From IMG/VR virus record IMGVR_UViG_3300032069_000052, positions 1-24,148 of that record: a DNA stretch of 24,148 bases; one strand, given 5' to 3'. The notes beneath the pieces are model-generated. The model was not told the origin of the DNA and did not search any database. It saw only the letters and a list, made by a program, of their open reading frames with translations. Numbering within the stretch: position 1 is the first letter of the stretch; every line of letters begins with the position of its first letter. Below are positions 286 to 24,148 of the stretch, in pieces. The position numbers and the translations under genes were made by a program. This stretch comes from a virus.

Positions 286-383
286 CTTCTTTTCGTCGAT
301 AAAACCGGGCATATTGAGCACCCCCCTTCTCCCCTCTCGTGACGAGGTGGGCTCCAAACCCGCCCTATTGATATAGATAATAA

Positions 384-454
384 ATATTAGTTAAATATAT
401 ATAGATAGATAATATAGATAGATAATATAGTATAGATATTAGTTGAATATATAT
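384..454. repeat. AT-rich repeat block: 19-bp direct repeats flanking a 13-bp tandem duplication
   Basis: ATATTAGTTAAATATATAT (384-402) recurs at 436-454 with one mismatch. Between the copies the 13-mer AGATAGATAATAT occurs twice head to tail (403-415 and 416-428) and then begins to repeat again. The block contains almost no G or C apart from single Gs. Such blocks are typical of easily melted DNA near origins or of slippage-generated low complexity; the sequence alone does not separate the two. Confidence 0.7.
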
Positions 455-472
455 CAGTTAATATGTTAGTAG

Positions 473-508
473 TTAATACTAATATTAGTGATTAGTGATT
501 AGTATTAA
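473..508. repeat. 11-bp inverted repeat enclosing ATTAGTG heptamers
   Basis: TTAATACTAAT (473-483) and ATTAGTATTAA (498-508) are perfect reverse complements. Between and into the right arm run three head-to-tail heptamers: ATTAGTG (484-490), ATTAGTG (491-497) and ATTAGTA (498-504). It directly follows the AT-rich tandem block. Short iterated boxes inside a palindrome are a common form for initiator or repressor binding sites. The binding protein is unknown. Confidence 0.65.
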
Positions 509-864
509 TATGAGTTGACTTATGGCTTACTTATGAGAAACAAAAGAGATAAGCTAACATTCCAGGGAAAGCAATCGCGGTTCCCGAAAAACATGATCTT
601 CTAGTCTTCAGTTAATTCGAGGTTGTTGTTTGGGTCGCATAAGAATTATTATGTTAACTGACAGGCGAAATAGTGGAGTAGTGGTGGGCGGTTAAGATTT
701 TTTTTGATCTATGCGCCAGGGGGGTGTCCTATTGACGGGTGGTGGTTGTGCATATATAACCTCATTCACTTTTTACTGAGCAAAATTGAAATACGGGGGA
801 AGATGGTCAATGATGGAGCGTAGTCGATTCACGGGTTAACATCTTGATAAATAATGGGATGGGG

Positions 865-9755: not shown

Positions 9756-12506
9756 TTGAAGAAAATCCTAGCGATTTCTAGTATTCTACTTTTCTTTTTA
9801 CTATCCCCATTTTTGGCCTTCGCCACCCAATACTACGTTTCTAAGACTGATGGCAGCAATGGGTATAACGGTCTCTATCCTACCTACCAGGGTGGGGTAA
9901 ACGGCCCGTGGCTGACCCTCTCTTACGCTATGACGAACGGCTGGGGGGCGGATGCGATTGTAAGTGTTTGTACCGATGGAAAATTTCGGGAGACCGTAAC
10001 AATCCCGAGTTCGGGCACGGCGGGTCACTACAAAACACTCAACACCTATGGTACGGGGGCAAAGCCTCAAATTCTTGGTTCAACTCAGCTCACCGGCTGG
10101 ACCCCAGATACCGGCCATTATGTCTGTACCTCTTCATTGACCGTGGCGCTTTACTTTATCAACACCAACGGCACGGTCAAGTGGGGCCATAAAAAGGCGA
10201 GTAAGGCTGCCTGTATTGCCGAATATGACTGGTACGGAAACGGGACAAACATCTGGTGTTTCGTTCCTGCTGGTGGGGAGCAAGACCCCGATAGCCGATA
10301 CATAAGTATTGAGGGTGCGACCAGGGATTATTGCATCAGCAATGCTAAGACATATATCACGATTGATGGGTTCGAAACAGCCTATGCGGTTCAGGCTGGA
10401 ATTTGGTTTGACGGCACCACCGCCAACTACGGCATCATTAAAAACTGCCTCTCTCATCATATTGGAACATACCCGACTGGATATAATGCGGGTGTCGGAG
10501 ACTGCATAAGGTTCACAGCAAGTTATGGTTTAATCCAATCCAGCACTTTGCATGACGGATCTAATCATGGGATTTATGTCCATGAGAAAAGCGGGCAAAA
10601 TTGTGTCAATAATATCATAGAGGGCCTTCACGTTTACGATTGCTACCACGTTGGCATCGACGTTTTGATTTATTTCACCGGCAGGCTCGGAAGTGGTCAT
10701 ATTGTTCGCTATAATTACGTCTACTGTACGGATGATTGGGACAGTGTTTCCGGCGTTGATATGGGAGGCATAAGTCTCCACAACCAATACACAGCCAGCA
10801 ATTTAGATGCCTGCCAGGTCTATTACAACGCGATCTGGAACATGATGGGGAAGGGGATCGCAGTCGAACACAACGTGACCAACACCATCATCGAAAATAA
10901 CACTTGTTACAAATCAAATCCGAATTGCGGGGCAATTTATGCCCCTGGAATTTACGTCGCTCTCAGTGCTACTTCCGGAACAGTTCTTAAAAATAATGTT
11001 TCGGTCGACTGGAAAGACGAGTGCCTGTTTGTGGGAGCCCGTGCAAATGTGTCTGGCTGTGATAACAACTGTTGGTATCAAAGTGCGGGCGGGACGGCTG
11101 TTTATACCTACACGGATATTAGCCCAAACTCTTTCCATTATGACGATTTTACTCTTTGGAAAAGTAAAACCGGCTGGGGCACTCCGTCTGGATACGCGGA
11201 TGCCGCCAGCAAGTGGGAAGATCCGAAATTCGTTTCAACGACTGACTATCATCTTCAAGCAAGTTCTCCCTGTATAGATACTGGCATTGCTGTTGGCCTT
11301 ACTCAAGACATTGAAGGGTATTCCGTACCCACGGGCGGAGCGCCTGACATGGGGGCATACGAGTATCAAGGAACCGTTGAAATCAACATAACGGACGGGG
11401 TGAATAATATTGCTGATGGTGGGACATTTGATTTCGGTTCAAGGGTTGTTGCTTCAAATACAGATCAGGAATTCACCATCCAAAACCTCGGCACTGCCGA
11501 CCTAACGCTAAGCGGTTCTCCGATCATTACTATCACAGGGACCAATGCGGATCAGTTCAGTGTCCAGGTGCAGCCGACGACTCCGATTACTGGTGGTAAC
11601 CATGTTCACTTCACTTTGAGATTCACTCCGACCACGGCCGGGGCGAAGGTTGCGGCGATCTCGATTGCCAATAACGACGCAGACGAAAACCCCTATGATA
11701 TTAACCTTACGGGCACGGGTATTTCAGCCGCCGAGATCAATGTCAAACAAAACACTACCAACATTCCAGATGGCGAAAGCTATGCTTTTGGAAACCAGCG
11801 TTTAAGCACAAACACAGATGTTGTTTTCACCATAGAAAATCTAGGTGGATCTGATCTAACTTTAAGTGGAAGTCCGATCATAATCCTCGGTGGAGCCGAC
11901 GCTTCACAGTTTAGTGTTCAGGCCCAGCCTACCAGCCCTATCACTCCGGGAAATTACACCACTTTTACCATTCGGTTTACCCCAACTTCGATAGGCGATA
12001 AAACCGCAACCACTACGATTACCAACAATGACTCTGATGAGGGAACATACGATCTTACCTTCTTCGGAACCGGAATAGCCCCCGAAATCAATATTAAACA
12101 AGGGACTGACAACATTACATCTGGCGGGACGTATGCTTTCGGGACGCATGCTGTGAATACAAATACCGATGTTGTTTTTACTATTGAAAATATTGGAACC
12201 GATTATCTGACATTAAGTGGCACTCCGATCATAGTTATAACTGGTTCGGGGGCGGCTCATTATAGTGTTGAAGCACAGCCGACAACTCCTGTTTCTGCAC
12301 CAAAAGGGAGCACAACCTTTACGATTCGGTTTAAGCCAACTTCCACGGGGTTGAAATCTGCATCTATATCCATAGCCAACGATGATACTGACGAAAACCC
12401 ATATGTCATTAATTTTACAGGAACGGGGGAAGCCGATACTTCAAGTCTTATTTTTCCGGCCAGAACTCCTGAGGTTACTCCTGCAATCACGCCGGAAATA
12501 AAATAG
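9756..12506 (+). CDS. exported beta-helix protein with choice-of-anchor Q and D-type domains, 916 aa
   Basis: It starts with TTG at 9756, five to six bases after a strong AAGGAG; no ATG is near. Residues 1-23 are a textbook signal peptide ending AFA before T24. About 25-500 look like a right-handed parallel beta-helix (asparagine-ladder stretches such as NNIIEGLHVYDC, YNYVYCTDD and IENNTCYKS), as in polysaccharide-acting or surface proteins. About 500-540 carry the SPCIDTG...DIEG...GAPDMGAYEYQG signature of choice-of-anchor Q domains. Three repeats of about 117 residues start near 542, 660 and 777 (EIN, AFG or DFG, TIENLG, LSGSPI, FSVQ, FTPT, INLTGTG) and read as Ig-like choice-of-anchor D/ASH domains. 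Phage tailspikes often use beta-helices, but a Sec signal and anchor domains are typical of bacterial surface proteins, suggesting acquisition from a host. No catalytic residues are assigned. Confidence 0.85.
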   Translation: MKKILAISSILLFFLLSPFLAFATQYYVSKTDGSNGYNGLYPTYQGGVNGPWLTLSYAMTNGWGADAIVSVCTDGKFRETVTIPSSGTAGHYKTLNTYGTGAKPQILGSTQLTGWTPDTGHYVCTSSLTVALYFINTNGTVKWGHKKASKAACIAEYDWYGNGTNIWCFVPAGGEQDPDSRYISIEGATRDYCISNAKTYITIDGFETAYAVQAGIWFDGTTANYGIIKNCLSHHIGTYPTGYNAGVGDCIRFTASYGLIQSSTLHDGSNHGIYVHEKSGQNCVNNIIEGLHVYDCYHVGIDVLIYFTGRLGSGHIVRYNYVYCTDDWDSVSGVDMGGISLHNQYTASNLDACQVYYNAIWNMMGKGIAVEHNVTNTIIENNTCYKSNPNCGAIYAPGIYVALSATSGTVLKNNVSVDWKDECLFVGARANVSGCDNNCWYQSAGGTAVYTYTDISPNSFHYDDFTLWKSKTGWGTPSGYADAASKWEDPKFVSTTDYHLQASSPCIDTGIAVGLTQDIEGYSVPTGGAPDMGAYEYQGTVEINITDGVNNIADGGTFDFGSRVVASNTDQEFTIQNLGTADLTLSGSPIITITGTNADQFSVQVQPTTPITGGNHVHFTLRFTPTTAGAKVAAISIANNDADENPYDINLTGTGISAAEINVKQNTTNIPDGESYAFGNQRLSTNTDVVFTIENLGGSDLTLSGSPIIILGGADASQFSVQAQPTSPITPGNYTTFTIRFTPTSIGDKTATTTITNNDSDEGTYDLTFFGTGIAPEINIKQGTDNITSGGTYAFGTHAVNTNTDVVFTIENIGTDYLTLSGTPIIVITGSGAAHYSVEAQPTTPVSAPKGSTTFTIRFKPTSTGLKSASISIANDDTDENPYVINFTGTGEADTSSLIFPARTPEVTPAITPEIK
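11379..12431 (+). repeat. three tandem Ig-like coding repeats (about 350 bp each)
   Basis: Units begin near 11379, 11733 and 12084. They share protein signatures EIN-K/T, Y/FDFG or AFG, FTI-NLG, LSGSPI, FSVQ-QPT-PI, FT-RF-PT and NLTGTG, with partial DNA similarity around the LSGSPI and FT-RF segments. The spacing is regular (354 and 351 bp). They are diverged tandem duplications within one gene rather than recent copies. Confidence 0.75.
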
Positions 12507-12699: not shown

Positions 12700-12927
12700 A
12701 TTTAAGCGAAATTATACACGAGCAAGTTACATGGCGGAATCCCGCATCTGATTTTAGATACGGGGGTTGGCACAGATTCTATAGCCGATATTAAACACAA
12801 ACTTTTCCTACAAGATATCGGCATTGGCATGAACTTGGTTCAATGGAAGGAGAAGATCGGAAGACAATTAATCGCCTGTGAAGATAGGCATGGAGAAATC
12901 TTCATTCGTTTGAGGAAAACAAAATGA
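12696..12927 (+). pseudogene. small gene split by a one-base frameshift (76 aa if joined)
   Basis: An ATG at 12696 overlaps the previous stop (ATGA) and opens a frame that ends early at TAA 12792-12794 (32 aa). A second open frame, shifted by one base, continues from about 12754 to the TGA at 12925-12927, which overlaps the ATG of the next gene (again ATGA). Removing one T from the TTTT run at 12752-12755 joins them into a coherent 76-residue product running ...NPASDLDTGVGTDSIADIKHK... The overlaps at both outer ends show the whole interval was one coupled gene. It may be a real mutation, an assembly indel, or +1 frameshifting at TTT-AGA. Function unknown. Confidence 0.65.
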
Positions 12928-13553
12928 ATAGAGGCGCAATAAGAACACGGGCAAGAATCTTTTTGGACGAACCAGCCGAAAATCGTTGGACTGATGTAAA
13001 CCTTAACAGTTTAATCGAGGAAGCCAAGAATGAAGTTGCTGCCATTTTCCTTTCCCTGGACGAAAGTTATTATCTTAAATCTGACCATTTTGATCTTGAA
13101 GCCGGAAAAGAACTTTATGACCTCCCTGCCGATTTTATCCGGCTCAAGGAAATTCATGACGAGGATGAAGAAGTCCCCGTCAAGGTTTCTGCTTCAAAGC
13201 GCGTAGAGTATTTAAGCCGTGGCGAACTGGTTGCTTTTTATTTTGAGAAAAGCCAAATCGGGTTTTTGGATATTCCAGCCCAGGCAGAAGTTATCAACTA
13301 TAAATATGTTTATTCGCCGGCAGAGTTGTCAGATGACGATTCAATTCCAGATGTACCCGTGTATTTGGGGCATGACCTGATTGCCGTTCTCACGGCTATT
13401 CAGGCCCTGGATCTGGACGAAGACGAAGATAATCCACTCATTCGGAAAGCACAGCGACTTGAAGACAGGATACGGACTACCTATTACAAACGGACAACCC
13501 ATCTTCCTCAGTACGGTGAATCGGACGAGGAGCTTGATCCGATAGACGATTGA
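12924..13553 (+). CDS. head-completion / portal adaptor protein (P22 gp4-like)
   Basis: The protein opens with RTRARIFLDEPAENRWTDVNLNSLIEEAKNEVAAIFLSLDESYY, a helical start followed by a W-TD--L---I--A pattern seen in podovirus head-completion and tail-accessory adaptors. A beta region with LYDLPADFIRLKEIHDE follows, then an acidic C-terminus (residues about 196-209). The 209-residue length suits this family. Such adaptors bind the portal after packaging, seal the head and seat the nozzle. GAGG precedes the ATG by eight bases, and the stop lies two bases from the next gene's ATG, so adaptor and nozzle are coupled. Identification rests on motif style and position between capsid and nozzle genes. 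Confidence 0.75.
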   Translation: MNRGAIRTRARIFLDEPAENRWTDVNLNSLIEEAKNEVAAIFLSLDESYYLKSDHFDLEAGKELYDLPADFIRLKEIHDEDEEVPVKVSASKRVEYLSRGELVAFYFEKSQIGFLDIPAQAEVINYKYVYSPAELSDDDSIPDVPVYLGHDLIAVLTAIQALDLDEDEDNPLIRKAQRLEDRIRTTYYKRTTHLPQYGESDEELDPIDD

Positions 13554-13555
13554 CG

Positions 13556-15397
13556 ATGAAAAGAAAAAGAGGGCTCACACCTACCGACAAATTCAATTTC
13601 GGCGGTGGTCTGGTTACGATGATGGCTAAGACCAGGCTTGCTCCTAACCAACTTGTTGCCGCAAAGAATGTCAATATTTATGTTGACGGCGAGATCGAGG
13701 TTCGCGGTGGGTGTGCGAAAGTTTCAACCGTGGCTTTCGGGACAGAGATTGATCGTTTTATTCACTTCAAGACAGATGTCTACGACAAGATCGTGGCTTA
13801 TGGTGGAACATATATTAAGCGATTAGACAAGGGCACGCCTGATGTTTGGACACAACTTGACGGGTCCATGCCCGATACAGAGGAATTGCGAAGTTTGGAT
13901 ATAGGTCAAAACAAATTGTATATAGGGGCAACAGATAGCATCGGGGTTAGAAAGTATGTCCGTAATCAATCTGCCCTATGGAAGGCCGGGATCACAAAAC
14001 CCGCCGCCGCTATTACCGCAGCAGATGGTGGGGCAGGAGTCCTGAGTGGTACTTATTACTGGTACTGGACCTATTACAATTCTCTGACGGGCGAAGAAAG
14101 CGACCCCTCCCCCATCTCGGGAGTTCTCGTGGTCACGGACAAACAGGTGACGTTGAGTAGTTTCGTGGCCAGTACGGATCCACAGATTGACAAGATTAGG
14201 ATATATCGAAACCCCACGGGTGTTTCTACCTGGTACTATGTTGGGCAAAAGACCAACGACGTCAATAACTTTACGGACAATGTGGCCGATAATAACCTAG
14301 GCCCAGAGATTAGTTTTAAAAATGGCGAACCTCCCAAGGCCGCAATTCTCAGGTACCATCTTAACCGTATGTTTTATGTCAATGCGGACTATCCGAGTCG
14401 GCTCTATTGGTCCGAGGCGCTGTTGCCCGGATCGGTTCATATCAACAGTTGGCAAGGCATTGAAGACAGGGATGGTGGAAAAATCCTTGCACTCGGTTCC
14501 AGTTATGACAATATCATAGTCTATAAAAATACGGGCGTCTTCTGCTTTTCCTTTGATGTCGGTAATCCCGACAATAGTTCCTATATTCCCCTCACAAGCG
14601 AATACGGAATCGTGGCTCCGATGTCGGTGGCTCATGTTGGTGAAGATGAAATTTTTCTATCCTCGGAAGGGCTGAAGCTTATCACCAATGGCGGAACAAA
14701 GATTGACGAAATAGAGATTCCCATTATTGTTCCAGAGGGCATGAAAAATATCAATCCCATCACCAGCATTTTCAGAGAGTGCAAACAGGATGCAATATCA
14801 AAGGCCGTCGGCATCTATTATGAAGCCAAAAATCAATATCATATCTCGGTTCCCTATTACTCGAATAGCAATAATGACTTAACCCTGGTTTGGCACAAGG
14901 ACGTAAATGCCTTTACCATTCACGAAGATTTTAACGTGAAGGCTACGGGACTCTACCGCGAATATGATAACCGGTTGCTCTACCGAAGCCATAATGATCA
15001 ATACATTTATCAACATGACATTGGGTTTACCGATGATAACGTGGATATTACCTTCAAATTGCAGACGGGATGGAATACCCTCGATGGAATCAATGACCGG
15101 AAAAATATTCGTCTGATGTTCCCGACTGTTTATGGGGCAGACGGCGTGGTTCTAAACTATAAGATTTTCAAGGATTTTGAAATAGATGGCCCGGTAGTTT
15201 CATTGACTCACCAGGGAGCTTCCTATTGGGGGTATGCTCATTGGGGACAGAACTATTGGGGGGCTGCCGGGGAAGTGACATATCGAAAACCAACCTGTGT
15301 GAAGGGTCGCATCTTCTCAACGCAATTTTATGGCACGGTCAATAAGAAAGTCGGACTTGCCGATTATCAGTTTTTCTACCAGCCAAAGAGTTTGTAA
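13556..15397 (+). CDS. tail nozzle / packaged-DNA stabilisation protein (P22 gp10-like)
   Basis: The N-terminus, FNFGGGLVTMMAKTRLAPNQLVAAKNVNIYVDGEIEVRGG, is a familiar start of podovirus DNA-stabilisation and nozzle proteins. Much of the rest (613 residues) is beta-rich with repeated aromatic and Asp/Gly turns, compatible with a beta-propeller around the tail channel. Near residues 165-230 a GTYYWYWTYYNSLTGEESDPSP segment with KIRIYR resembles a fibronectin-type insert. Its partner is the adaptor gene just upstream. The ATG at 13556 is used; the frame also allows a TTG at 13550 overlapping the adaptor stop. The C-terminal end (ASYWGYAHWGQNYWGAAG) is Trp/Tyr-rich. It terminates in TAATG with the next gene. 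Confidence 0.8.
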   Translation: MKRKRGLTPTDKFNFGGGLVTMMAKTRLAPNQLVAAKNVNIYVDGEIEVRGGCAKVSTVAFGTEIDRFIHFKTDVYDKIVAYGGTYIKRLDKGTPDVWTQLDGSMPDTEELRSLDIGQNKLYIGATDSIGVRKYVRNQSALWKAGITKPAAAITAADGGAGVLSGTYYWYWTYYNSLTGEESDPSPISGVLVVTDKQVTLSSFVASTDPQIDKIRIYRNPTGVSTWYYVGQKTNDVNNFTDNVADNNLGPEISFKNGEPPKAAILRYHLNRMFYVNADYPSRLYWSEALLPGSVHINSWQGIEDRDGGKILALGSSYDNIIVYKNTGVFCFSFDVGNPDNSSYIPLTSEYGIVAPMSVAHVGEDEIFLSSEGLKLITNGGTKIDEIEIPIIVPEGMKNINPITSIFRECKQDAISKAVGIYYEAKNQYHISVPYYSNSNNDLTLVWHKDVNAFTIHEDFNVKATGLYREYDNRLLYRSHNDQYIYQHDIGFTDDNVDITFKLQTGWNTLDGINDRKNIRLMFPTVYGADGVVLNYKIFKDFEIDGPVVSLTHQGASYWGYAHWGQNYWGAAGEVTYRKPTCVKGRIFSTQFYGTVNKKVGLADYQFFYQPKSL

Positions 15398-17056: not shown

Positions 17057-17866
17057 ATGAAAAGAGTATTCTGTGTTTTTCTCGCCTTGCTGATGATGGG
17101 GGGGGCCCTGCTTGCAGACGTTTCTCCCAAAACCATGAAGGAAATTAGGCAAGCGACCTGTGCGATTGTCAGTTATTTTGAAATAAACGAGACAAAACCG
17201 ATGCAAGGACGGCAGGGAGAATCAGGGAAAAATCATCCATTTATCACGGTTCCGTTAGGCCGAATACAAGACAGTCCTAACTATCTGGTGGCCTACGTCG
17301 GCGCGGGGACGTTATTGAAAGATAACTTTATCCTTACCGTGCGGCACATGATTATCTCGGAAAGCGGAGAAGACGCGACTAATATCTATGCCATATTTGA
17401 AGGCATAGATCATCCAATCGGATGCAATGTTGTTGCCGTCAGCAAGGGAGAAAAATTTTGTGATGATTATGCGATTTTGAAGCCACGGGAAAATATACCC
17501 AGGAAGGGTTTGAAAATCGCCAAACATGAATTCAAATATGGTGAATGGATCGTCTTCAATGGCTCCGCGGGAGGCCTGGCTTTTTTTGCCAGAGTGGGAC
17601 ATGCCATTGATTTACAGAGTTATTTTTACAGGGATGATAATACCAACACCCTCCACCTGGGAACTTTTGAAGCCTTCCCCTTCTTGACGGTTTATCCCGG
17701 TGGCCCCGGTGATTCGGGGGGCTCAATTAAAAACGAGGACGGAGAGATTATCGGGCTCATGTACTGTGGAATTGCGGTGTACGAGGAAGAATATGTATTT
17801 TCAAATCCCCTGTCAATGTTAAAGGAGTTTCTGTTTAAGTCCGGCTTAGAGGAATTGCTGGAATGA
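17057..17866 (+). CDS. secreted trypsin-like serine protease (S1 fold), 269 aa
   Basis: Residues 1-20 are a signal peptide (MKRVF, hydrophobic core, LLA before D21). The catalytic triad is readable: H97 in FILTVRHM (compare LTAAHC), D137 in CDDYAIL, and S220 in GGPGDSGGSI, the oxyanion-hole signature. GAGTLLKDNFILTV and GEIIGLMYCGIAVY match the flanking strands of the S1 barrel. Cysteines at 35, 123, 135 and 237 could pair outside the cytoplasm. The product is thus expected to act in the periplasm or outside. Its ATGA overlap with the next gene links it to a GWxTD lipoprotein. The ribosome leader GCAAAAGGGGAAAG is identical to that of the gene at 23315. A secreted S1 protease is unusual in a phage lysis region; the substrate is unknown. 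Confidence 0.85.
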   Translation: MKRVFCVFLALLMMGGALLADVSPKTMKEIRQATCAIVSYFEINETKPMQGRQGESGKNHPFITVPLGRIQDSPNYLVAYVGAGTLLKDNFILTVRHMIISESGEDATNIYAIFEGIDHPIGCNVVAVSKGEKFCDDYAILKPRENIPRKGLKIAKHEFKYGEWIVFNGSAGGLAFFARVGHAIDLQSYFYRDDNTNTLHLGTFEAFPFLTVYPGGPGDSGGSIKNEDGEIIGLMYCGIAVYEEEYVFSNPLSMLKEFLFKSGLEELLE

Positions 17867-18830: not shown

Positions 18831-20183
18831 ATGCTTTTAACGATACCGAATACCTTTCAAAACGGAACTGGCGCGGGCAATATCATTGACGCGACCCAGA
18901 TGAATAGCAACTTTAGCGCGGTTGTGACGGTCCTCAACGGCAACCTTGAAAAGAACAATGTCAAGACCGGATCTTCAATATGCCTGGATGATACCGTTAT
19001 GACAATTTCGGCGGCCTGGGTCTTTTCGACCAACCCTGTTTTTAACGCCGGGGCAATTGCCGATAATTACTTGACTTCCAATATTCCCAAAAAAGATGCG
19101 GCCAACGTCTTTGCGGCCCAGCAAGAGTTTGCGGCGGGTATAAACCTGGATAGGCAGCAAGCTCAAAATTTCGTCTGTGAAAAGGTTGCCAGTCTTCCCG
19201 GTGGAACATCCCAAGATATTGGGCGTATTGTCTATTGCACGGGGGATAACAAGTTTTATGGTTGGAATGGAACGGCCTGGCAACAGATTGACTATACGGG
19301 CGGATACACGGGCGGGGCGGTTCGTGGCTATTCGGCAACCCTGGACCTGGATAACGGGAACAGTTCAAAACTCTGGTTTAAAACCGAAGGGGCAAGCCCC
19401 ACCGTCAAGATTGCCCTGATGGGACTTATGTTCCCAAAGCGGTTTTATACGGAACTTGGGTATCACAATCATGGTATTACCGATGGCGGACATGCCCACA
19501 ATGCCGCCGGAGCTCACAACCATCACGTTGATCTTGGTTCGCATACTCATTCGGGAACCTTCGGGTCTTCAAGTCATACCCACAATGTAAGCGGAACTAC
19601 GGGAAGCGAATCTTCTCATACCCATGGAGGCGGAACATATAGTACCGGAACATCTGCTACTCACGTCCATCATAGCGTACAAATAGGAAGTGATGAAACA
19701 GGGGCATCGGGGGCACATAGCCATACTAACTTTGTTGGTTCTTCCGGCGCGGGTTCAGCCCACAGTCATACCTTTTCAGATACCTCCGACGGACCCTCGG
19801 CGACAGCTTCAGTTAGTAGTACCGACCTTGGTGGGGTTTACTCAGCCTATACCAATCCGGGGCCAACGGATTCAGCGATTACGGGCATTACCATCAACGC
19901 TGCCGGAATTAATGCCGGGACACTTAGCGCATCTCAAAAACAATATGCCGATAGTCTAACCGTTTCAATTGACGGAACAGATGTTACGGCGGCCATTCTT
20001 TCGGCAACGGGTTGGTCACAGATCGGCGACGGTACGGCCACTCATGATTTCCATGTCAGTGGTACAGGGGAGATGAACGCTTCGGCATGGAAAAGCTATG
20101 CGGCGGGATTCCATGTTATCGAAATTACAGAGCCGACAACCGATAGGGGTTGCCGGATCATGATTCACATAGAGACTTTTTAA
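18831..20183 (+). CDS. tail fibre with His-x-His metal-binding needle, 450 aa
   Basis: The N-terminus (IPNTFQNGTGAGNIIDATQMNSNFSAVVTVLNGNL) has the form used by phage fibres to join the tail. A middle segment with IGRIVYCTGDNKFYGWNGTAWQQID is a common fibre module. Residues about 212-313 hold nine HxH motifs (HNH, HAH, HNH, HTH three times, HVH, HSH twice) spaced by Gly/Ser/Thr. This is the pattern of the T4 gp37 needle, where such histidines from three chains bind iron along the axis. The C-terminus (DRGCRIMIHIETF) would form the tip. It is the likely receptor-binding fibre. Its start follows GGGAG and the lysis-like cassette lies upstream, so tail genes are split around lysis genes. Confidence 0.88.
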   Translation: MLLTIPNTFQNGTGAGNIIDATQMNSNFSAVVTVLNGNLEKNNVKTGSSICLDDTVMTISAAWVFSTNPVFNAGAIADNYLTSNIPKKDAANVFAAQQEFAAGINLDRQQAQNFVCEKVASLPGGTSQDIGRIVYCTGDNKFYGWNGTAWQQIDYTGGYTGGAVRGYSATLDLDNGNSSKLWFKTEGASPTVKIALMGLMFPKRFYTELGYHNHGITDGGHAHNAAGAHNHHVDLGSHTHSGTFGSSSHTHNVSGTTGSESSHTHGGGTYSTGTSATHVHHSVQIGSDETGASGAHSHTNFVGSSGAGSAHSHTFSDTSDGPSATASVSSTDLGGVYSAYTNPGPTDSAITGITINAAGINAGTLSASQKQYADSLTVSIDGTDVTAAILSATGWSQIGDGTATHDFHVSGTGEMNASAWKSYAAGFHVIEITEPTTDRGCRIMIHIETF

Positions 20184-20194
20184 GGAGGATAAAA

Positions 20195-20887
20195 ATGGCG
20201 ACAAATCCATATTACAGTATGTCAAGTTATCCTACCACGGGAGGCTGGGAAACCATGAGTGGTGGGGGCGGCGGTGGTGGCGGGTCTGCCTTCGATCCAG
20301 TAGGTGCAGCTATCGGTGGCGGCCTTAGTTTACTCGGGGGTATTTTCGCGGGAATAGCAAAAGGCAAAAGGCGTAAAGAAAATAAAAAGGCGTATGAGCA
20401 AGCCCAAAAGGATTACCAAGCCAGGGCCGGACAGTTATTCCCGGAGCTTTCTAAAGAATCGTTTATGTACAAAAGCCCCGAGTTGAATAACGCCATTCAA
20501 GGAGCACTAGCCTATCGCCTCAAGAATATGTTTGCCGATTGGGGGATGCCCGAGGGTAGAACCGGGGGCATGGATCAGCTCAATCAACTTTTTGCCAACC
20601 TGATGCCACAACAGCAACCCCAGGCTCAGATTCAACCTGGCGGTGGTTTTAATCCCATGCAGATGCAGGGAATGGGCCAGGGAATGGGCCAGGGAATGGG
20701 CCAAAGAATGGGCGGTCCCATGATGGGGATGGGCGGTCGCGGTGGCGGACAAGGCGGATGGTACGGGGATTTTTCGGGTCCGGGAATGGGCGGTCCCATG
20801 ATGGGGATGGACGGTCGCGGTGGCGGACAAGGCGGATGGTACGGGGATTTTTCGGGTCCGGGAATGGGCGGATCTCGGATGATGTAA
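20195..20887 (+). CDS. Gly/Met-rich putative ejection protein with glycine-zipper segment, 230 aa
   Basis: The ATG follows a perfect AAGGAGG; the open frame upstream to 20150 lies inside the fibre gene. Residues about 22-29 are a glycine run. About 36-54 (GAAIGGGLSLLGGIFAGIA) form a glycine-zipper hydrophobic segment followed by the basic KGKRRKE. A helical middle (about 60-140) and a Gln/Met/Gly-rich C-terminus with two 26-residue repeats (GPMMGM-GRGGGQGGWYGDFSGPGMG) follow. Small virion proteins with a zipper segment preceding DNA-ejection proteins are usual in podoviruses, where they help form the envelope-spanning conduit. No homologue can be named. The low-complexity tail may be disordered or self-associating. 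Confidence 0.65.
   Translation: MATNPYYSMSSYPTTGGWETMSGGGGGGGGSAFDPVGAAIGGGLSLLGGIFAGIAKGKRRKENKKAYEQAQKDYQARAGQLFPELSKESFMYKSPELNNAIQGALAYRLKNMFADWGMPEGRTGGMDQLNQLFANLMPQQQPQAQIQPGGGFNPMQMQGMGQGMGQGMGQRMGGPMMGMGGRGGGQGGWYGDFSGPGMGGPMMGMDGRGGGQGGWYGDFSGPGMGGSRMM
20672..20863 (+). repeat. 12-bp and 78-bp tandem repeats in the ejection-type gene
   Basis: Three 12-bp units (AATGGGCCAGGG type, 20672-20707, peptide MGQG or MGQR) lead into two 78-bp units (20708-20785 and 20786-20863). The 78-bp units differ by a single G/A base, which changes GGR to DGR; a partial third unit starts at 20864. Near identity implies recent duplication or ongoing homogenisation. Confidence 0.9.
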
Positions 20888-20899
20888 GGAGAAATTAAA

Positions 20900-21262
20900 G
20901 TGGTGCAAAAAAATCTATACAAACCATATCCTAATGTTCCGGCCAATCCTTATATTCCAGGAATTCAGGCAAACAATCAAGGGATAGGTCAGGGATGGGG
21001 ACAACAAAACTCTTCTGGCGCTATACCTAATATAAATCTGCAATTTCCAGTCCATCATGAATTTCAGGGAATTCAACGTAACCAGATGCCGAATTATCAG
21101 ATGCCAAACATGGGAATGGGGCAAGGCATGGGAATGAGATCACCCTATGCGGGTATGTTCCCAGGGCGGGGAATGGGGATGCAGGGCGGAATGGGACAAG
21201 GCGGATGGTACGGGGATTTCATGCGGCAACCGAATCCCGGTTACGGTGTTCCCCTGTACTAA
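20900..21262 (+). CDS. Met/Gln/Pro-rich virion-type protein, 120 aa
   Basis: The start is GTG at 20900 (a second GTG follows at once), eight bases after AAGGAG. The sequence is low in charge and rich in Asn, Gln, Pro, Gly and Met, with MGMGQGMGM-type runs and a C-terminal GQGGWYGDF block. That block repeats 26 bases found exactly twice in the upstream gene (third copy at 21194-21219), showing shared origin or recombination between the two. It lacks membrane segments and is probably flexible. Position inside the ejection-protein run suggests a virion component. No family is recognised. Confidence 0.6.
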   Translation: MVQKNLYKPYPNVPANPYIPGIQANNQGIGQGWGQQNSSGAIPNINLQFPVHHEFQGIQRNQMPNYQMPNMGMGQGMGMRSPYAGMFPGRGMGMQGGMGQGGWYGDFMRQPNPGYGVPLY

Positions 21263-21274
21263 GAGGAGAAAACA

Positions 21275-22207
21275 ATGGCGCAAAAATCTACGAGCGGAGG
21301 CGGATATTGGAAAGCCCCGAGTTCTAAAATCAGTTCCCCGAAAGGATGGCAATGGGCTCAAAAGCAGTATTCCCCGCAATTCCTGAAATCTGTTGAAAAT
21401 ACCTACGGTGGTTGGCAGGGACTTGTTGACCAACCCGGCATTGATATGACGCAGCTGCCGAGGACGGCGGAGGAATGGCGGAATTATAAACCGACTTCTC
21501 TTGCCGATATGTATAAGGGATTCACGGAAAAGAATCCCCTCATGGAGCAGACCCAGTACAATCAAGCAATGGAGCGGGTACGCGGGGCGGGCGGTGGAGC
21601 AATCCAGGGTCTAATGAATATGGCGGCGGCAAGGCCTGGTGGGGCGTCATACGGAGGATTTGATAATAGCGTAGATCAGATCAATAAGGCCATGATGGAA
21701 GGCGGTATGGATGTTGCCACTCAACAGGCCATGCAGAATATTGCCGAACAACAGGCAAATCAGGAAAAGCTCATCGGATATACGGGTCAAGATATCGGCA
21801 ATCAGATGGGTTGGCTTCAGGGCTTGACTGGGGCACAAGGTACCGATTGGTCGAACTATTTAGCGGGTATGGGCCAAAATTTTAATCAGCAATTAGGTGC
21901 TTTGCAGGGACAATCGGGTTGGCTGGGCCAGATGACTCCGTATGAGCAATTCAATATTCAGACTCCGCGTCAATGGGCAGCACAGCAAGCGGCGGCAAAT
22001 TCGGCGGCGGCCATGAATGAGGAACGAATTAATGCAGCCCGTCGTGGCGAGACAATGGGTTGGCTCGATAAACTTATGCAATGGCAGAATCAAGGCGCGA
22101 ATCAGTATTATGGTGGTCAGCAAGACTGGTTAAATTACGGCCATCAGCGCGGCGATGCTGAGTTGGGCGGGTACAATCCTAGCTGGCTAGGCTGGACTCA
22201 AGAGTAA
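21275..22207 (+). CDS. putative internal virion / DNA-ejection protein, 310 aa
   Basis: A good AAGAGGAG precedes the ATG. The product is rich in Gln, Ala, Gly and Trp with helical stretches and methionines (NQAMERVRGAGGGAIQGLMNMAAARPGG; QQAMQNIAEQQANQEKLIGYTGQDIGNQMGWLQGL). This is the composition typical of podovirus ejection proteins that leave the head with DNA and line the conduit. Around 225-260 a QWAAQQAAANSAAAMNEERINAARRGE segment is a clear charged-Ala helix. No enzyme motif is seen. A long leader with a hairpin separates it from the next gene. Confidence 0.65.
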   Translation: MAQKSTSGGGYWKAPSSKISSPKGWQWAQKQYSPQFLKSVENTYGGWQGLVDQPGIDMTQLPRTAEEWRNYKPTSLADMYKGFTEKNPLMEQTQYNQAMERVRGAGGGAIQGLMNMAAARPGGASYGGFDNSVDQINKAMMEGGMDVATQQAMQNIAEQQANQEKLIGYTGQDIGNQMGWLQGLTGAQGTDWSNYLAGMGQNFNQQLGALQGQSGWLGQMTPYEQFNIQTPRQWAAQQAAANSAAAMNEERINAARRGETMGWLDKLMQWQNQGANQYYGGQQDWLNYGHQRGDAELGGYNPSWLGWTQE

Positions 22208-22330: not shown

Positions 22331-23281
22331 ATGGACTTTGACTGGGAAACATTCGTTGGTACGGGGGTTCAGCCCGCGTTGAAATGGCTTCAAGACTACA
22401 TGGGTTATGGTCTGCAATCAAATTTAGAACGCCAGAAGTATATGCAGGATATCAGCAAAATCCAAACCGAATACGGCGAAAGGCGCAGGGGTTCTAAACT
22501 TGAATATGACCTGGCCATGAGTCGAGACAAAGGGCTTCAAGACTTTGAAAAGGATATAGCTCATATAAAAGATGGCATAGAGCGGGGTCAAATCGATTAT
22601 CAAGCCCGGACAGACTTGAGTTTAACCAAGGCCAAGTCGGATGTCTTTATCGGGCAAACTAAGGCCGAAGAAGAAATCAGAACGGCAGAGCAACAGAAAC
22701 GATACAAGGCCTACGCAGATTCGTTAAGAGGTCTTTATAATCAAGATCCGAAAGCCAAAGAAAACGTTGGTATCAACACGGTAACTCAACTGGGGGAATT
22801 AACGGGCAAGATGTTTAAGCATCAATCAGAAGCCGCAACGCGTATCGGAGCCCTGGCTATGCAAGAGGCCGAGTTAAAAAAACAAATCGCCAAGGCAAAG
22901 CCCCAGGAAGTTGGTTCGATACAAGAACAGCTGGCAATCAATCAAACCCAAGCGAAAATGTGGAAGACAAATCTGGACCGCATCGCGCAATTCCAGGACG
23001 TTGCCGACAGAACCTTAAAGGGACTGCACTCAACCGGAATCACGGAGAATGGACAAATCCCGGATGACAAAAAGCGTCTATACATGGATGGTTTGAGTTA
23101 TCTCGAAACAAAATACCGGGAAAAGGGGCTAAGTCTGGCCATGTTGCCCGTAGAGAAGATTGCGGAGCGACTTAAGGTTATGTATCCCGATGTCGAAATC
23201 ACGCCCGACGACCTGAAATTTATTGACGCTAATAAACTTTGGCTTGTCGATTGGATGAATAAACAAACCAAAAAGAAATAA
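22331..23281 (+). CDS. coiled-coil putative ejection protein, 316 aa
   Basis: Residues about 30-230 are strongly helical and charged (RQKYMQDISKIQTEYGERRRGSKLEYDLAMSRDKGLQDFEKDIAHIKDG as a leading stretch, then MQEAELKKQIAKAKPQEVGSIQEQLAINQ), consistent with long coiled coils. The C-terminus is a compact acidic/basic domain (YPDVEITPDDLKFIDANKLWLVDWMNKQTKKK). There is no signal peptide, no transmembrane segment and no recognised catalytic motif. Placement after two putative ejection proteins and before a large glycine-zipper protein fits an internal virion core or ejection role. The start at 22331 follows AGGGGG. Confidence 0.65.
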   Translation: MDFDWETFVGTGVQPALKWLQDYMGYGLQSNLERQKYMQDISKIQTEYGERRRGSKLEYDLAMSRDKGLQDFEKDIAHIKDGIERGQIDYQARTDLSLTKAKSDVFIGQTKAEEEIRTAEQQKRYKAYADSLRGLYNQDPKAKENVGINTVTQLGELTGKMFKHQSEAATRIGALAMQEAELKKQIAKAKPQEVGSIQEQLAINQTQAKMWKTNLDRIAQFQDVADRTLKGLHSTGITENGQIPDDKKRLYMDGLSYLETKYREKGLSLAMLPVEKIAERLKVMYPDVEITPDDLKFIDANKLWLVDWMNKQTKKK

Positions 23282-23314: not shown

Positions 23315-24148
23315 ATGTATGATCTGTTTTCATTTATAGACGACGATTACGATCAGCTTAATCCGCAAGAGGCCCGTCAACGCAAACTTGATGAACTCAT
23401 AAACTCAGATATCGCTGCCTATACGCCCCAACCTCCGCCCAAGAAAAAGTCTTTTGCCCGCGAACTTCTGGACCCGCTTTATAGTTTTGCAAGCGGCGTT
23501 TATGGGGGAACAGCCAAGGTCTTGGATACGATGAGTTGGTTGACGCATGAACTCAATCCAGCTTTTCCGAGAACTGAGCAATTAACAGATTTACCCGTGC
23601 CCTGGTTGCGTCAACAAGAACAGGCCATGGGGGCAGCCGGGTATCCCGAAGGTTCCATTCCACAAAAAGTTTATAGCGGGCTAGGTGAAGCAGCCCCGGA
23701 TCTTCTGGCATTAAAAGGACTTGGGGCAGCCATGCCCATGGGGGCAGCACTTCCTGCATATGGGGCTGCCCAAGGTGGAAAAGAGGGTGGCTGGTATGGG
23801 GCGTTTCAAGGTGGATTAACGGGCGGATTGACCGGGGGAATCCTGCATGGCGTAGGTCAACTTCCTCCCGGATGGCGCATTCCTGCCGGATTCGGAGCCG
23901 GGTTTGCCACAACGCCTGGTGGTCTTGAAGAAAAGGTGTCGGGGGGTACAACGCTCGGTGTATTATCTGCCGGGGGCGGCCCGGTCAGCAGTCGTGAATT
24001 TTGGGATCGGTACGCCCGAGAACCTAAGCCCCTAACCGAAACCGAAAAGCAAATCCTGAATAACGTCAAAGAGAATCTTGCCTATATCACAGGCAAGAAA
24101 AACGTCAGCGAATTCCCTCCGACCGAAGAAATAGATTGGTCTAAAGAA
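23315..24148 (+). CDS. large ejection-type / polyvalent virion protein, partial (first 278 aa)
   Basis: The frame opens with ATG after GCAAAAGGGGAAAG and stays open to the window edge, so the C-terminus is missing. An acidic start (MYDLFSFIDDDYDQ) precedes a Pro/Lys stretch (TPQPPPKKK) and helices. A hydrophobic glycine-zipper region at about 122-185 (GLGAAMPMGAALPAYGAAQGG, GGWYGAFQGGLTGGLTGGILHGVG) suggests membrane insertion or conduit lining. The GGWYGAF peptide echoes GGWYGDF in the proteins at 20195 and 20900. In podoviruses the last ejection protein is often very long and may carry muralytic or other domains further on; none is visible here. Confidence 0.7.
   Translation, partial: MYDLFSFIDDDYDQLNPQEARQRKLDELINSDIAAYTPQPPPKKKSFARELLDPLYSFASGVYGGTAKVLDTMSWLTHELNPAFPRTEQLTDLPVPWLRQQEQAMGAAGYPEGSIPQKVYSGLGEAAPDLLALKGLGAAMPMGAALPAYGAAQGGKEGGWYGAFQGGLTGGLTGGILHGVGQLPPGWRIPAGFGAGFATTPGGLEEKVSGGTTLGVLSAGGGPVSSREFWDRYAREPKPLTETEKQILNNVKENLAYITGKKNVSEFPPTEEIDWSKE

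What the first reader, a model, noticed from the sequence alone, without database searches (positions are those of the whole stretch)
20708..21219. The same 26-bp segment occurs three times in two adjacent ejection-type genes
The sequence encoding GQGGWYGDF (20747-20772, 20825-20850 and 21194-21219) is identical at DNA level in two different genes, and the two 78-bp units differ at one base. This implies recent duplication and exchange between neighbouring genes. A related GGWYGAF occurs in the glycine-zipper part of the protein at 23315, so the peptide may be a shared docking or self-assembly motif of the ejection apparatus.
Basis: partly seen in the sequence, partly recalled or inferred. Interest (0 to 1): 0.6.

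Follow-up and report, generated by a model that had tools for sequence, protein, structure and literature searches.

The report
Repeated Gly-Trp tail in phage proteins
A short-tailed phage carries the same 26-base stretch three times near the ends of two neighbouring virion-type genes; it looks like a recently duplicated protein tail ending in a conserved Gly-Gly-Trp motif, next to a gene that has split in two, which is a modest and mostly ordinary case of phage gene remodelling.

Summary
In detail: three exact 26-bp copies and a 78-bp tandem pair with one difference (G20733/A20811, Gly to Asp). The window is an IMG/VR record of a short-tailed phage with P22/SU10-type portal and adaptor. Genes A (20195-20887), B (20900-21262) and C (21275-22207) follow each other. 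Two other IMG/VR contigs hold A and C. Neither has the 78-bp repeat, the GGWYGDF string or a separate gene B. In both, C starts directly after or overlapping A, and its N-terminus carries P-x-NPYI, as B's does. B and C lie in one frame, split by one TAA and a ribosome-binding site, so B is best read as the front of an ancestral C. All three A homologs end with GGW 16-19 residues from the C-terminus; B's end also has it (20). So GGW is the conserved core and YGDF is local. Codon identity beyond the peptide argues for DNA-level copying between A and B. GGWYGAF in the last gene is a conserved internal glycine-zipper piece, not the same element. A docking or assembly role of the tail is inferred, not shown. 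The events are ordinary; the C-terminal GGW tail is the only part of wider interest.

The parts
20195..20887 (+). Gene A, 230 aa: Gly-rich N-terminus, hydrophobic helix, conserved core (LFPELSKESFMYK..PELNNAIQ), Met/Gln/Gly-rich C-terminal tail
   Evidence: ORF (start at 20195 chosen from AAGGAGG and homologs); homologs 48% and 42% identical; no Pfam match
20666..20713 (+). 12-bp in-frame tandem array, 4 copies (GMGQ)
20706..20783 (+). 78-bp unit 1
20784..20861 (+). 78-bp unit 2, one difference (A at 20811, Gly to Asp); both units start with GAATGGGCGG, which recurs at 20862-20871
20747..20772 (+). 26-mer copy 1 (GQGGWYGDF)
20825..20850 (+). 26-mer copy 2; its GGW is 18 residues from the C-terminus of A
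20900..21262 (+). Gene B, 120 aa, GTG start; best read as the N-terminal part of the ancestral gene C, now with its own C-terminus
   Evidence: P-x-NPYI shared with both C homologs; same frame as C; no separate homolog in relatives
20939..20956 (+). P-A-NPYI motif of B
21194..21219 (+). 26-mer copy 3; its GGW is 20 residues from the C-terminus of B
21260..21274 (+). In-frame TAA, then GAGGAGAAAACA (ribosome-binding site) that splits B from C
21275..22207 (+). Gene C, 310 aa, remainder of the ancestral C
   Evidence: homologs 42% (G001) and 39% (L031) identical by BLAST
22331..23281 (+). Gene D, 316 aa, predicted virion-type protein
   Evidence: weak match to a tape-measure PHROG, 2.4e-4; homolog in G001
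23315..24148 (+). Gene E (open at record end), large protein with glycine zipper
   Evidence: homolog in L031, 37%; L031 copy matches a tail-associated lysin PHROG, 4.9e-6
23786..23806 (+). GGWYGAF in E: internal glycine-zipper piece, aligned with EGGWKGAA in L031

Best explanation
A is a small virion protein, probably of the set ejected with the DNA, with flexible Gly/Gln/Met-rich ends. Its C-terminal tail carries a conserved GGW 16-19 residues before the end; I infer that this exposed Trp-containing tail docks to another virion component or to itself. In this phage the tail recently doubled by an in-frame 78-bp tandem duplication, probably by slippage or unequal exchange between 10-bp direct repeats (GAATGGGCGG at both ends of the unit). 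The next gene, ancestrally one protein, was split by an in-frame stop with a ribosome-binding site into B (N-terminal part) and C (core). The new C-terminus of B carries a DNA-level copy of A's tail motif, so both proteins may now show the same tag. Shown: repeats, frame, absence in the two relatives, GGW conservation in 3 of 3 A homologs. Inferred: ejection role, docking, gene fission, route and order of copying.
For: Repeats and single difference. Codon-level identity beyond the peptide. Relatives L031 and G001 have A and C but no 78-bp repeat, no GGWYGDF and no separate B. GGW within the last 25 residues occurs in 4 of 106 genes of four related contigs, and these are the 3 A homologs and B; 0 of 137 genes of three distant podophage loci. 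Chance by shuffling the tails: 0.054 window, 0.0037 G001, 0.0025 L031. P-x-NPYI occurs only in B and in the 2 C homologs among the genes of these contigs; 34 of 200,000 shuffles of B place it in the first 30 residues. B and C share a frame. Portal matches P22_portal and SU10_portal, adaptor SU10_adaptor.
Against: Only three A homologs are known, and GGW in a Gly-rich tail is cheap for the window copy itself (0.054). Local alignment of whole B with the N-terminus of either C homolog is not significant (14% and 9% of shuffles reach it). Similarity of the A/B and B/C start regions beats shuffles (1 of 1000 reaches it) but ranks only second among 136 gene-start pairs, and A's own start is nearly as similar, so it does not prove a junction duplication. 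Coding tails after the 26-mer do not align better than shuffles (408 of 1000 reach it). Structure models are too poor to use (mean pLDDT 43 and 34). No ejection-protein family was matched by A, B or C.
Confidence: 0.5

Rival explanations
1. Neutral low-complexity drift: A and B have Gly/Met/Gln-rich disordered tails that grow and shrink by slippage; the 26-mer copies are debris without function.
For: 12-bp and 78-bp in-frame arrays side by side; tails do not align between relatives; 78-bp duplication is flanked by 10-bp direct repeats.
Against: GGW at 16-19 residues from the end is kept in all three A homologs although the linkers are unalignable; slippage inside A does not put the motif at the end of B.
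Confidence: 0.3
2. One segmental duplication of the A-tail / C-start junction created B: the front of C became fused to a copy of A's tail, followed by a copied ribosome-binding site and start for the rest of C. (A more specific form of the best explanation.)
For: 12-base spacers at both junctions; start regions align better than 999 of 1000 shuffles; both starts read M-V/A-Q-K; B ends like an A tail.
Against: Junction similarity ranks second of 136 gene-start pairs, so it may be a shared strong initiation site; the coding tails between motif and stop do not align.
Confidence: 0.3
3. The shared peptide arose by selection for the same binding motif in both proteins, with coincident codons.
For: Nearly the same distance from the C-terminus in A and B (18 and 20 residues).
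Against: Probability about 6e-4 to 9e-4 that codons agree by chance.
Confidence: 0.07
4. Assembly artefact: repeat number is wrong or the split of B and C is a sequencing error.
For: Single metagenomic contig; reads not available.
Against: The two units differ at one base; the B/C break has both a stop and a well-placed ribosome-binding site; a total repeat of 156 bp is short.
Confidence: 0.06

Closest known systems
T7 gp14 / P22 gp7 small ejection proteins (PMC8954989, passages)
   Same: Size (230 aa against 181-240 aa), a hydrophobic helix, place in a cluster followed by a larger ORF
   Different: No sequence or profile match; the Met/Gly/Gln tail and GGW are not mentioned in the passages read; by my reading one hydrophobic helix, where gp14-like proteins are given two to five
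T7 gp16 basic C-terminal residues needed for infectivity (PMC8954989, passage)
   Same: A short C-terminal element of an ejection protein that matters
   Different: Basic residues, not Gly-Trp; different protein
Phage SU10 nozzle fibre-dock loop with three Trp (PMC9509320, passages)
   Same: Spaced Trp residues in a flexible segment serve as docking points in a phage of related portal/adaptor type
   Different: Belongs to the nozzle, not to ejection proteins; no homology to A or B claimed
Tape measure protein C-terminal segment (PHROG 10093)
   Same: The A homolog in L031 has GGIVTRPTNAIIGERGPEAIIPL before its GGW end (2e-7)
   Different: Window and G001 A proteins lack it

Membership tests
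T7 gp14-like / P22 gp7-like ejection proteins | Sequence or profile match | tested here: not met
   No Pfam match for A, B or C; E has a sub-threshold T7_gp14 hit of 0.18; no tblastn match in 50,697 phage records for A or C
T7 gp14-like / P22 gp7-like ejection proteins | Gene cluster: small, middle, large gene | tested here: met
   A 230, B+C 120+310, D 316, E at least 278 aa here; 1041 aa for the gene at that place in G001
T7 gp14-like / P22 gp7-like ejection proteins | Membrane-active, present in virion and ejected | not testable with these tools
   Model shows a helix at 42-55 but mean pLDDT is 43
Short-tailed phage of P22/SU10 portal type | Portal and adaptor profiles | tested here: met
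   P22_portal 3.1e-12, SU10_portal 1.9e-9; SU10_adaptor 1.8e-16
Tape measure proteins | Profile match in A | tested here: not met
   Window A: only phrog_37425, unknown function, 6.8e-4; L031 A matches TMP profiles over 30-55 residues only
In-frame tandem duplication | Period divisible by 3, near-identical units, short direct repeats at the ends | tested here: met
   78 bp, 1 difference, GAATGGGCGG at 20706, 20784, 20862

The most novel reading that the evidence does not exclude
The C-terminal GGW tail is an undescribed docking tag of phage ejection-type proteins, and after the neighbouring gene split, the new C-terminus was given the same tag by copying from A, so that both halves stay in the same assembly.
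Probability: 0.25. Interest if true: 0.55.

Novelty: new member of a known kind. Interest (0 to 1): 0.3.

Why it matters
Ejection proteins are among the most variable virion proteins, and how their parts find each other is poorly known. A tail that has changed almost completely between relatives except for GGW, yet was copied to a newly made C-terminus, would mark a testable docking site. If it is only low-complexity drift, it is an ordinary example of phage mosaicism.

Tried and rejected
Shared docking motif including gene E: rejected, since the E homolog in L031 has EGGWKGAA at the aligned place. GGWYGDF as a general virion motif: a degenerate DNA pattern found 17 stretches in 2.9 million viral contigs; 9 of 17 lie in tail-fibre-like ORFs of the type GNTYMxNxxGGWYGDFSGYYFR (my reading of the repeats, no profile run), 1 in a tape-measure-like ORF (also my reading), the other 7 in unrelated or very short ORFs; none looks like a relative of A or B. 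RNA element or promoter inside the repeat: no Rfam match in the window, promoter-like and terminator-like sites not clearly above shuffles. Fold comparison: not run, because both models were poor. Hosts or prophages: none found in genome contigs, phage records for A, C and E or plasmids for C. A single-query scan with the major capsid protein found nothing. Profiles of A and C against three distant podophage loci gave only weak hits; the best, for C in MW202795 at 0.034, is in the gene at the matching place, a lead only. Literature: GGWYG gave one unrelated paper (listing); searches for ejection protein with glycine-rich, tape-measure motif, gene fission, and Trp tail gave no description of this tail in their listings.

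Full report
What was checked. The 26-mer GGACAAGGCGGATGGTACGGGGATTT is at the three stated places with no mismatch, and nowhere else in the 24,148-base record with up to three mismatches. The 78-bp units 20706-20783 and 20784-20861 differ only at 20733/20811, G to A, Gly to Asp. TRF also reports a 12-bp array (4 copies, GMGQ) just before them. The window is the whole of an IMG/VR virus record, so reads, strain variants and the rest of the genome could not be examined, and the databases may leave out near-identical records.

Gene map. I use A (20195-20887), B (20900-21262), C (21275-22207), D (22331-23281) and E (23315 onward, cut by the record end). The start of A at 20195 is my choice from the AAGGAGG before it and from the homologs. 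The portal matches P22_portal and SU10_portal and the gene at 12924 SU10_adaptor; the gene at 13550 matches an 'internal virion protein' PHROG, and tblastn links it to same-named proteins of phages such as PH1. A to E follow a gene at 18831 that I read as tail-fibre-like. Gene order small, middle, large fits an ejection cluster as described in PMC8954989 (passages read), and the E homolog of L031 matches a tail-associated lysin PHROG at 4.9e-6. A, B and C match no named family, so 'ejection-type' remains an inference.

Relatives. Scans with A and C found one contig, G001, and the nozzle-type protein found in addition L031 and L032. L032 ends before A. So A and C can be compared in three genomes: window, G001 (36,483 bp) and L031 (from a 23,836-bp contig). 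A is 48% and 42% identical over aligned positions, C 42% and 39% by BLAST. Neither relative has the 78-bp repeat or GGWYGDF. GGGWY-type coding (GGWY) is found once in G001, in the N-terminal part of its A, and not in the motif list of L031.

The conserved core is GGW at the C-terminus. A ends with GGW 18 (window), 16 (G001) and 19 (L031) residues from the last residue, and B 20 (in one search the two relatives were read one residue short). Among 106 non-overlapping closed ORFs of at least 80 aa in the four contigs, GGW in the last 25 residues occurs in 4: the three A homologs and B. It occurs in 0 of 137 such ORFs of three distant podophage loci. Shuffling each tail gives GGW in the last 25 residues in 5.4% (window), 0.37% (G001) and 0.25% (L031) of trials. 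The motif and the 25-residue limit were chosen after seeing the window sequence and the alignments, so these numbers are indicative. All three A proteins also have a Gly-Trp in the first 36 residues.

B is probably the front of C. In L031 the start of C overlaps the end of A, and in G001 C starts 11 bases after A; neither has a gene between. The N-terminus of both C homologs carries P-x-NPYI (residues 21 and 18), as does B (residue 14), while the window's C lacks it; no other gene of these contigs has it, and 34 of 200,000 shuffles of B show it in the first 30 residues. B and C are in the same frame, separated by TAA, GAG GAG AAA ACA and then ATG. Against this, the overall local alignment of B to either N-terminus is not significant (14% and 9% of shuffles reach it), so the link rests on position, frame and one motif; a shared frame alone has a chance of one in three.

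DNA-level copying. Two independent copies of GQGGWYGD would share all eight codons with probability about 6e-4 (17 genes) or 9e-4 (A and B). Recoding B with the genome's codons reached 26 shared bases in 0 of 1000, and permuting its own synonymous codons in 3 of 1000. Copying is therefore likely, but the tract is short, the flanks upstream align only in part, and the coding ends after it do not align better than shuffles (408 of 1000 reach the score). A junction duplication of A-tail and C-start would explain tail, spacer and start together; the start regions beat 999 of 1000 shuffles but rank second of 136 gene-start pairs, and A's own start is close behind, so this stays a lead. The 78-bp duplication itself is explained by the 10-bp repeat GAATGGGCGG at both ends of the unit.

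Gene E. Its GGWYGAF at 23786-23806 aligns with EGGWKGAA in L031 inside a conserved glycine-rich stretch. It is an inherited internal part of E and does not support a common tag.

Mechanism. I think the tail is a flexible tether with an exposed Trp that docks to another virion part; doubling it in A would raise avidity. A precedent for Trp docking in a related type of virion is the SU10 nozzle loop, where Trp 839, 847 and 857 hold a trimeric fibre (PMC9509320, passages). A precedent for an essential C-terminal end of an ejection protein is T7 gp16 (PMC8954989, passage). Both are analogies. The AlphaFold models had mean pLDDT 43 (A) and 34 (C) from three-sequence alignments and were not used.

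Verdict. Its likely causes are ordinary: in-frame tandem duplication, local copying and gene fission in a fast-changing phage protein set. The C-terminal GGW tail is the part worth a test.

Noticed in passing
window 9756-12506: 916-aa protein with an apparent TTG start between capsid and adaptor genes, with HYDIN/ASH Ig-like domains (4.3e-18).
   Followed up: partly
window 17057-17866: Trypsin-like peptidase, below the Pfam cut-off (2.7e-4), in a structural/lysis region; L031 has a gene with a short match to it.
   Followed up: no
L031:17462-18307: The A homolog has a tape-measure-type segment GGIVTRPTNAIIGERGPEAIIPL (PHROG 10093, 2e-7), absent in the other two A proteins.
   Followed up: partly
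window 13550-15397: The nozzle-type protein has YWGYAHWGQNYWG near its end; L031 and L032 keep a similar aromatic/Trp row, G001 does not in the stretch printed. It recalls the three-Trp dock loop of SU10.
   Followed up: partly
L004:16618-17202 and other ORFs of G001: The relative carries several similar ORFs of HNH endonuclease type (my reading); one was tested (HNH_3, 6.8e-14), one lies between adaptor and nozzle genes.
   Followed up: partly
L012:3048-3068: An unrelated 175-aa ORF has GGWYGDF 14 residues from its C-terminus; not identified.
   Followed up: no
window 374-515: AT-rich short tandem repeats near the left end of the record.
   Followed up: no
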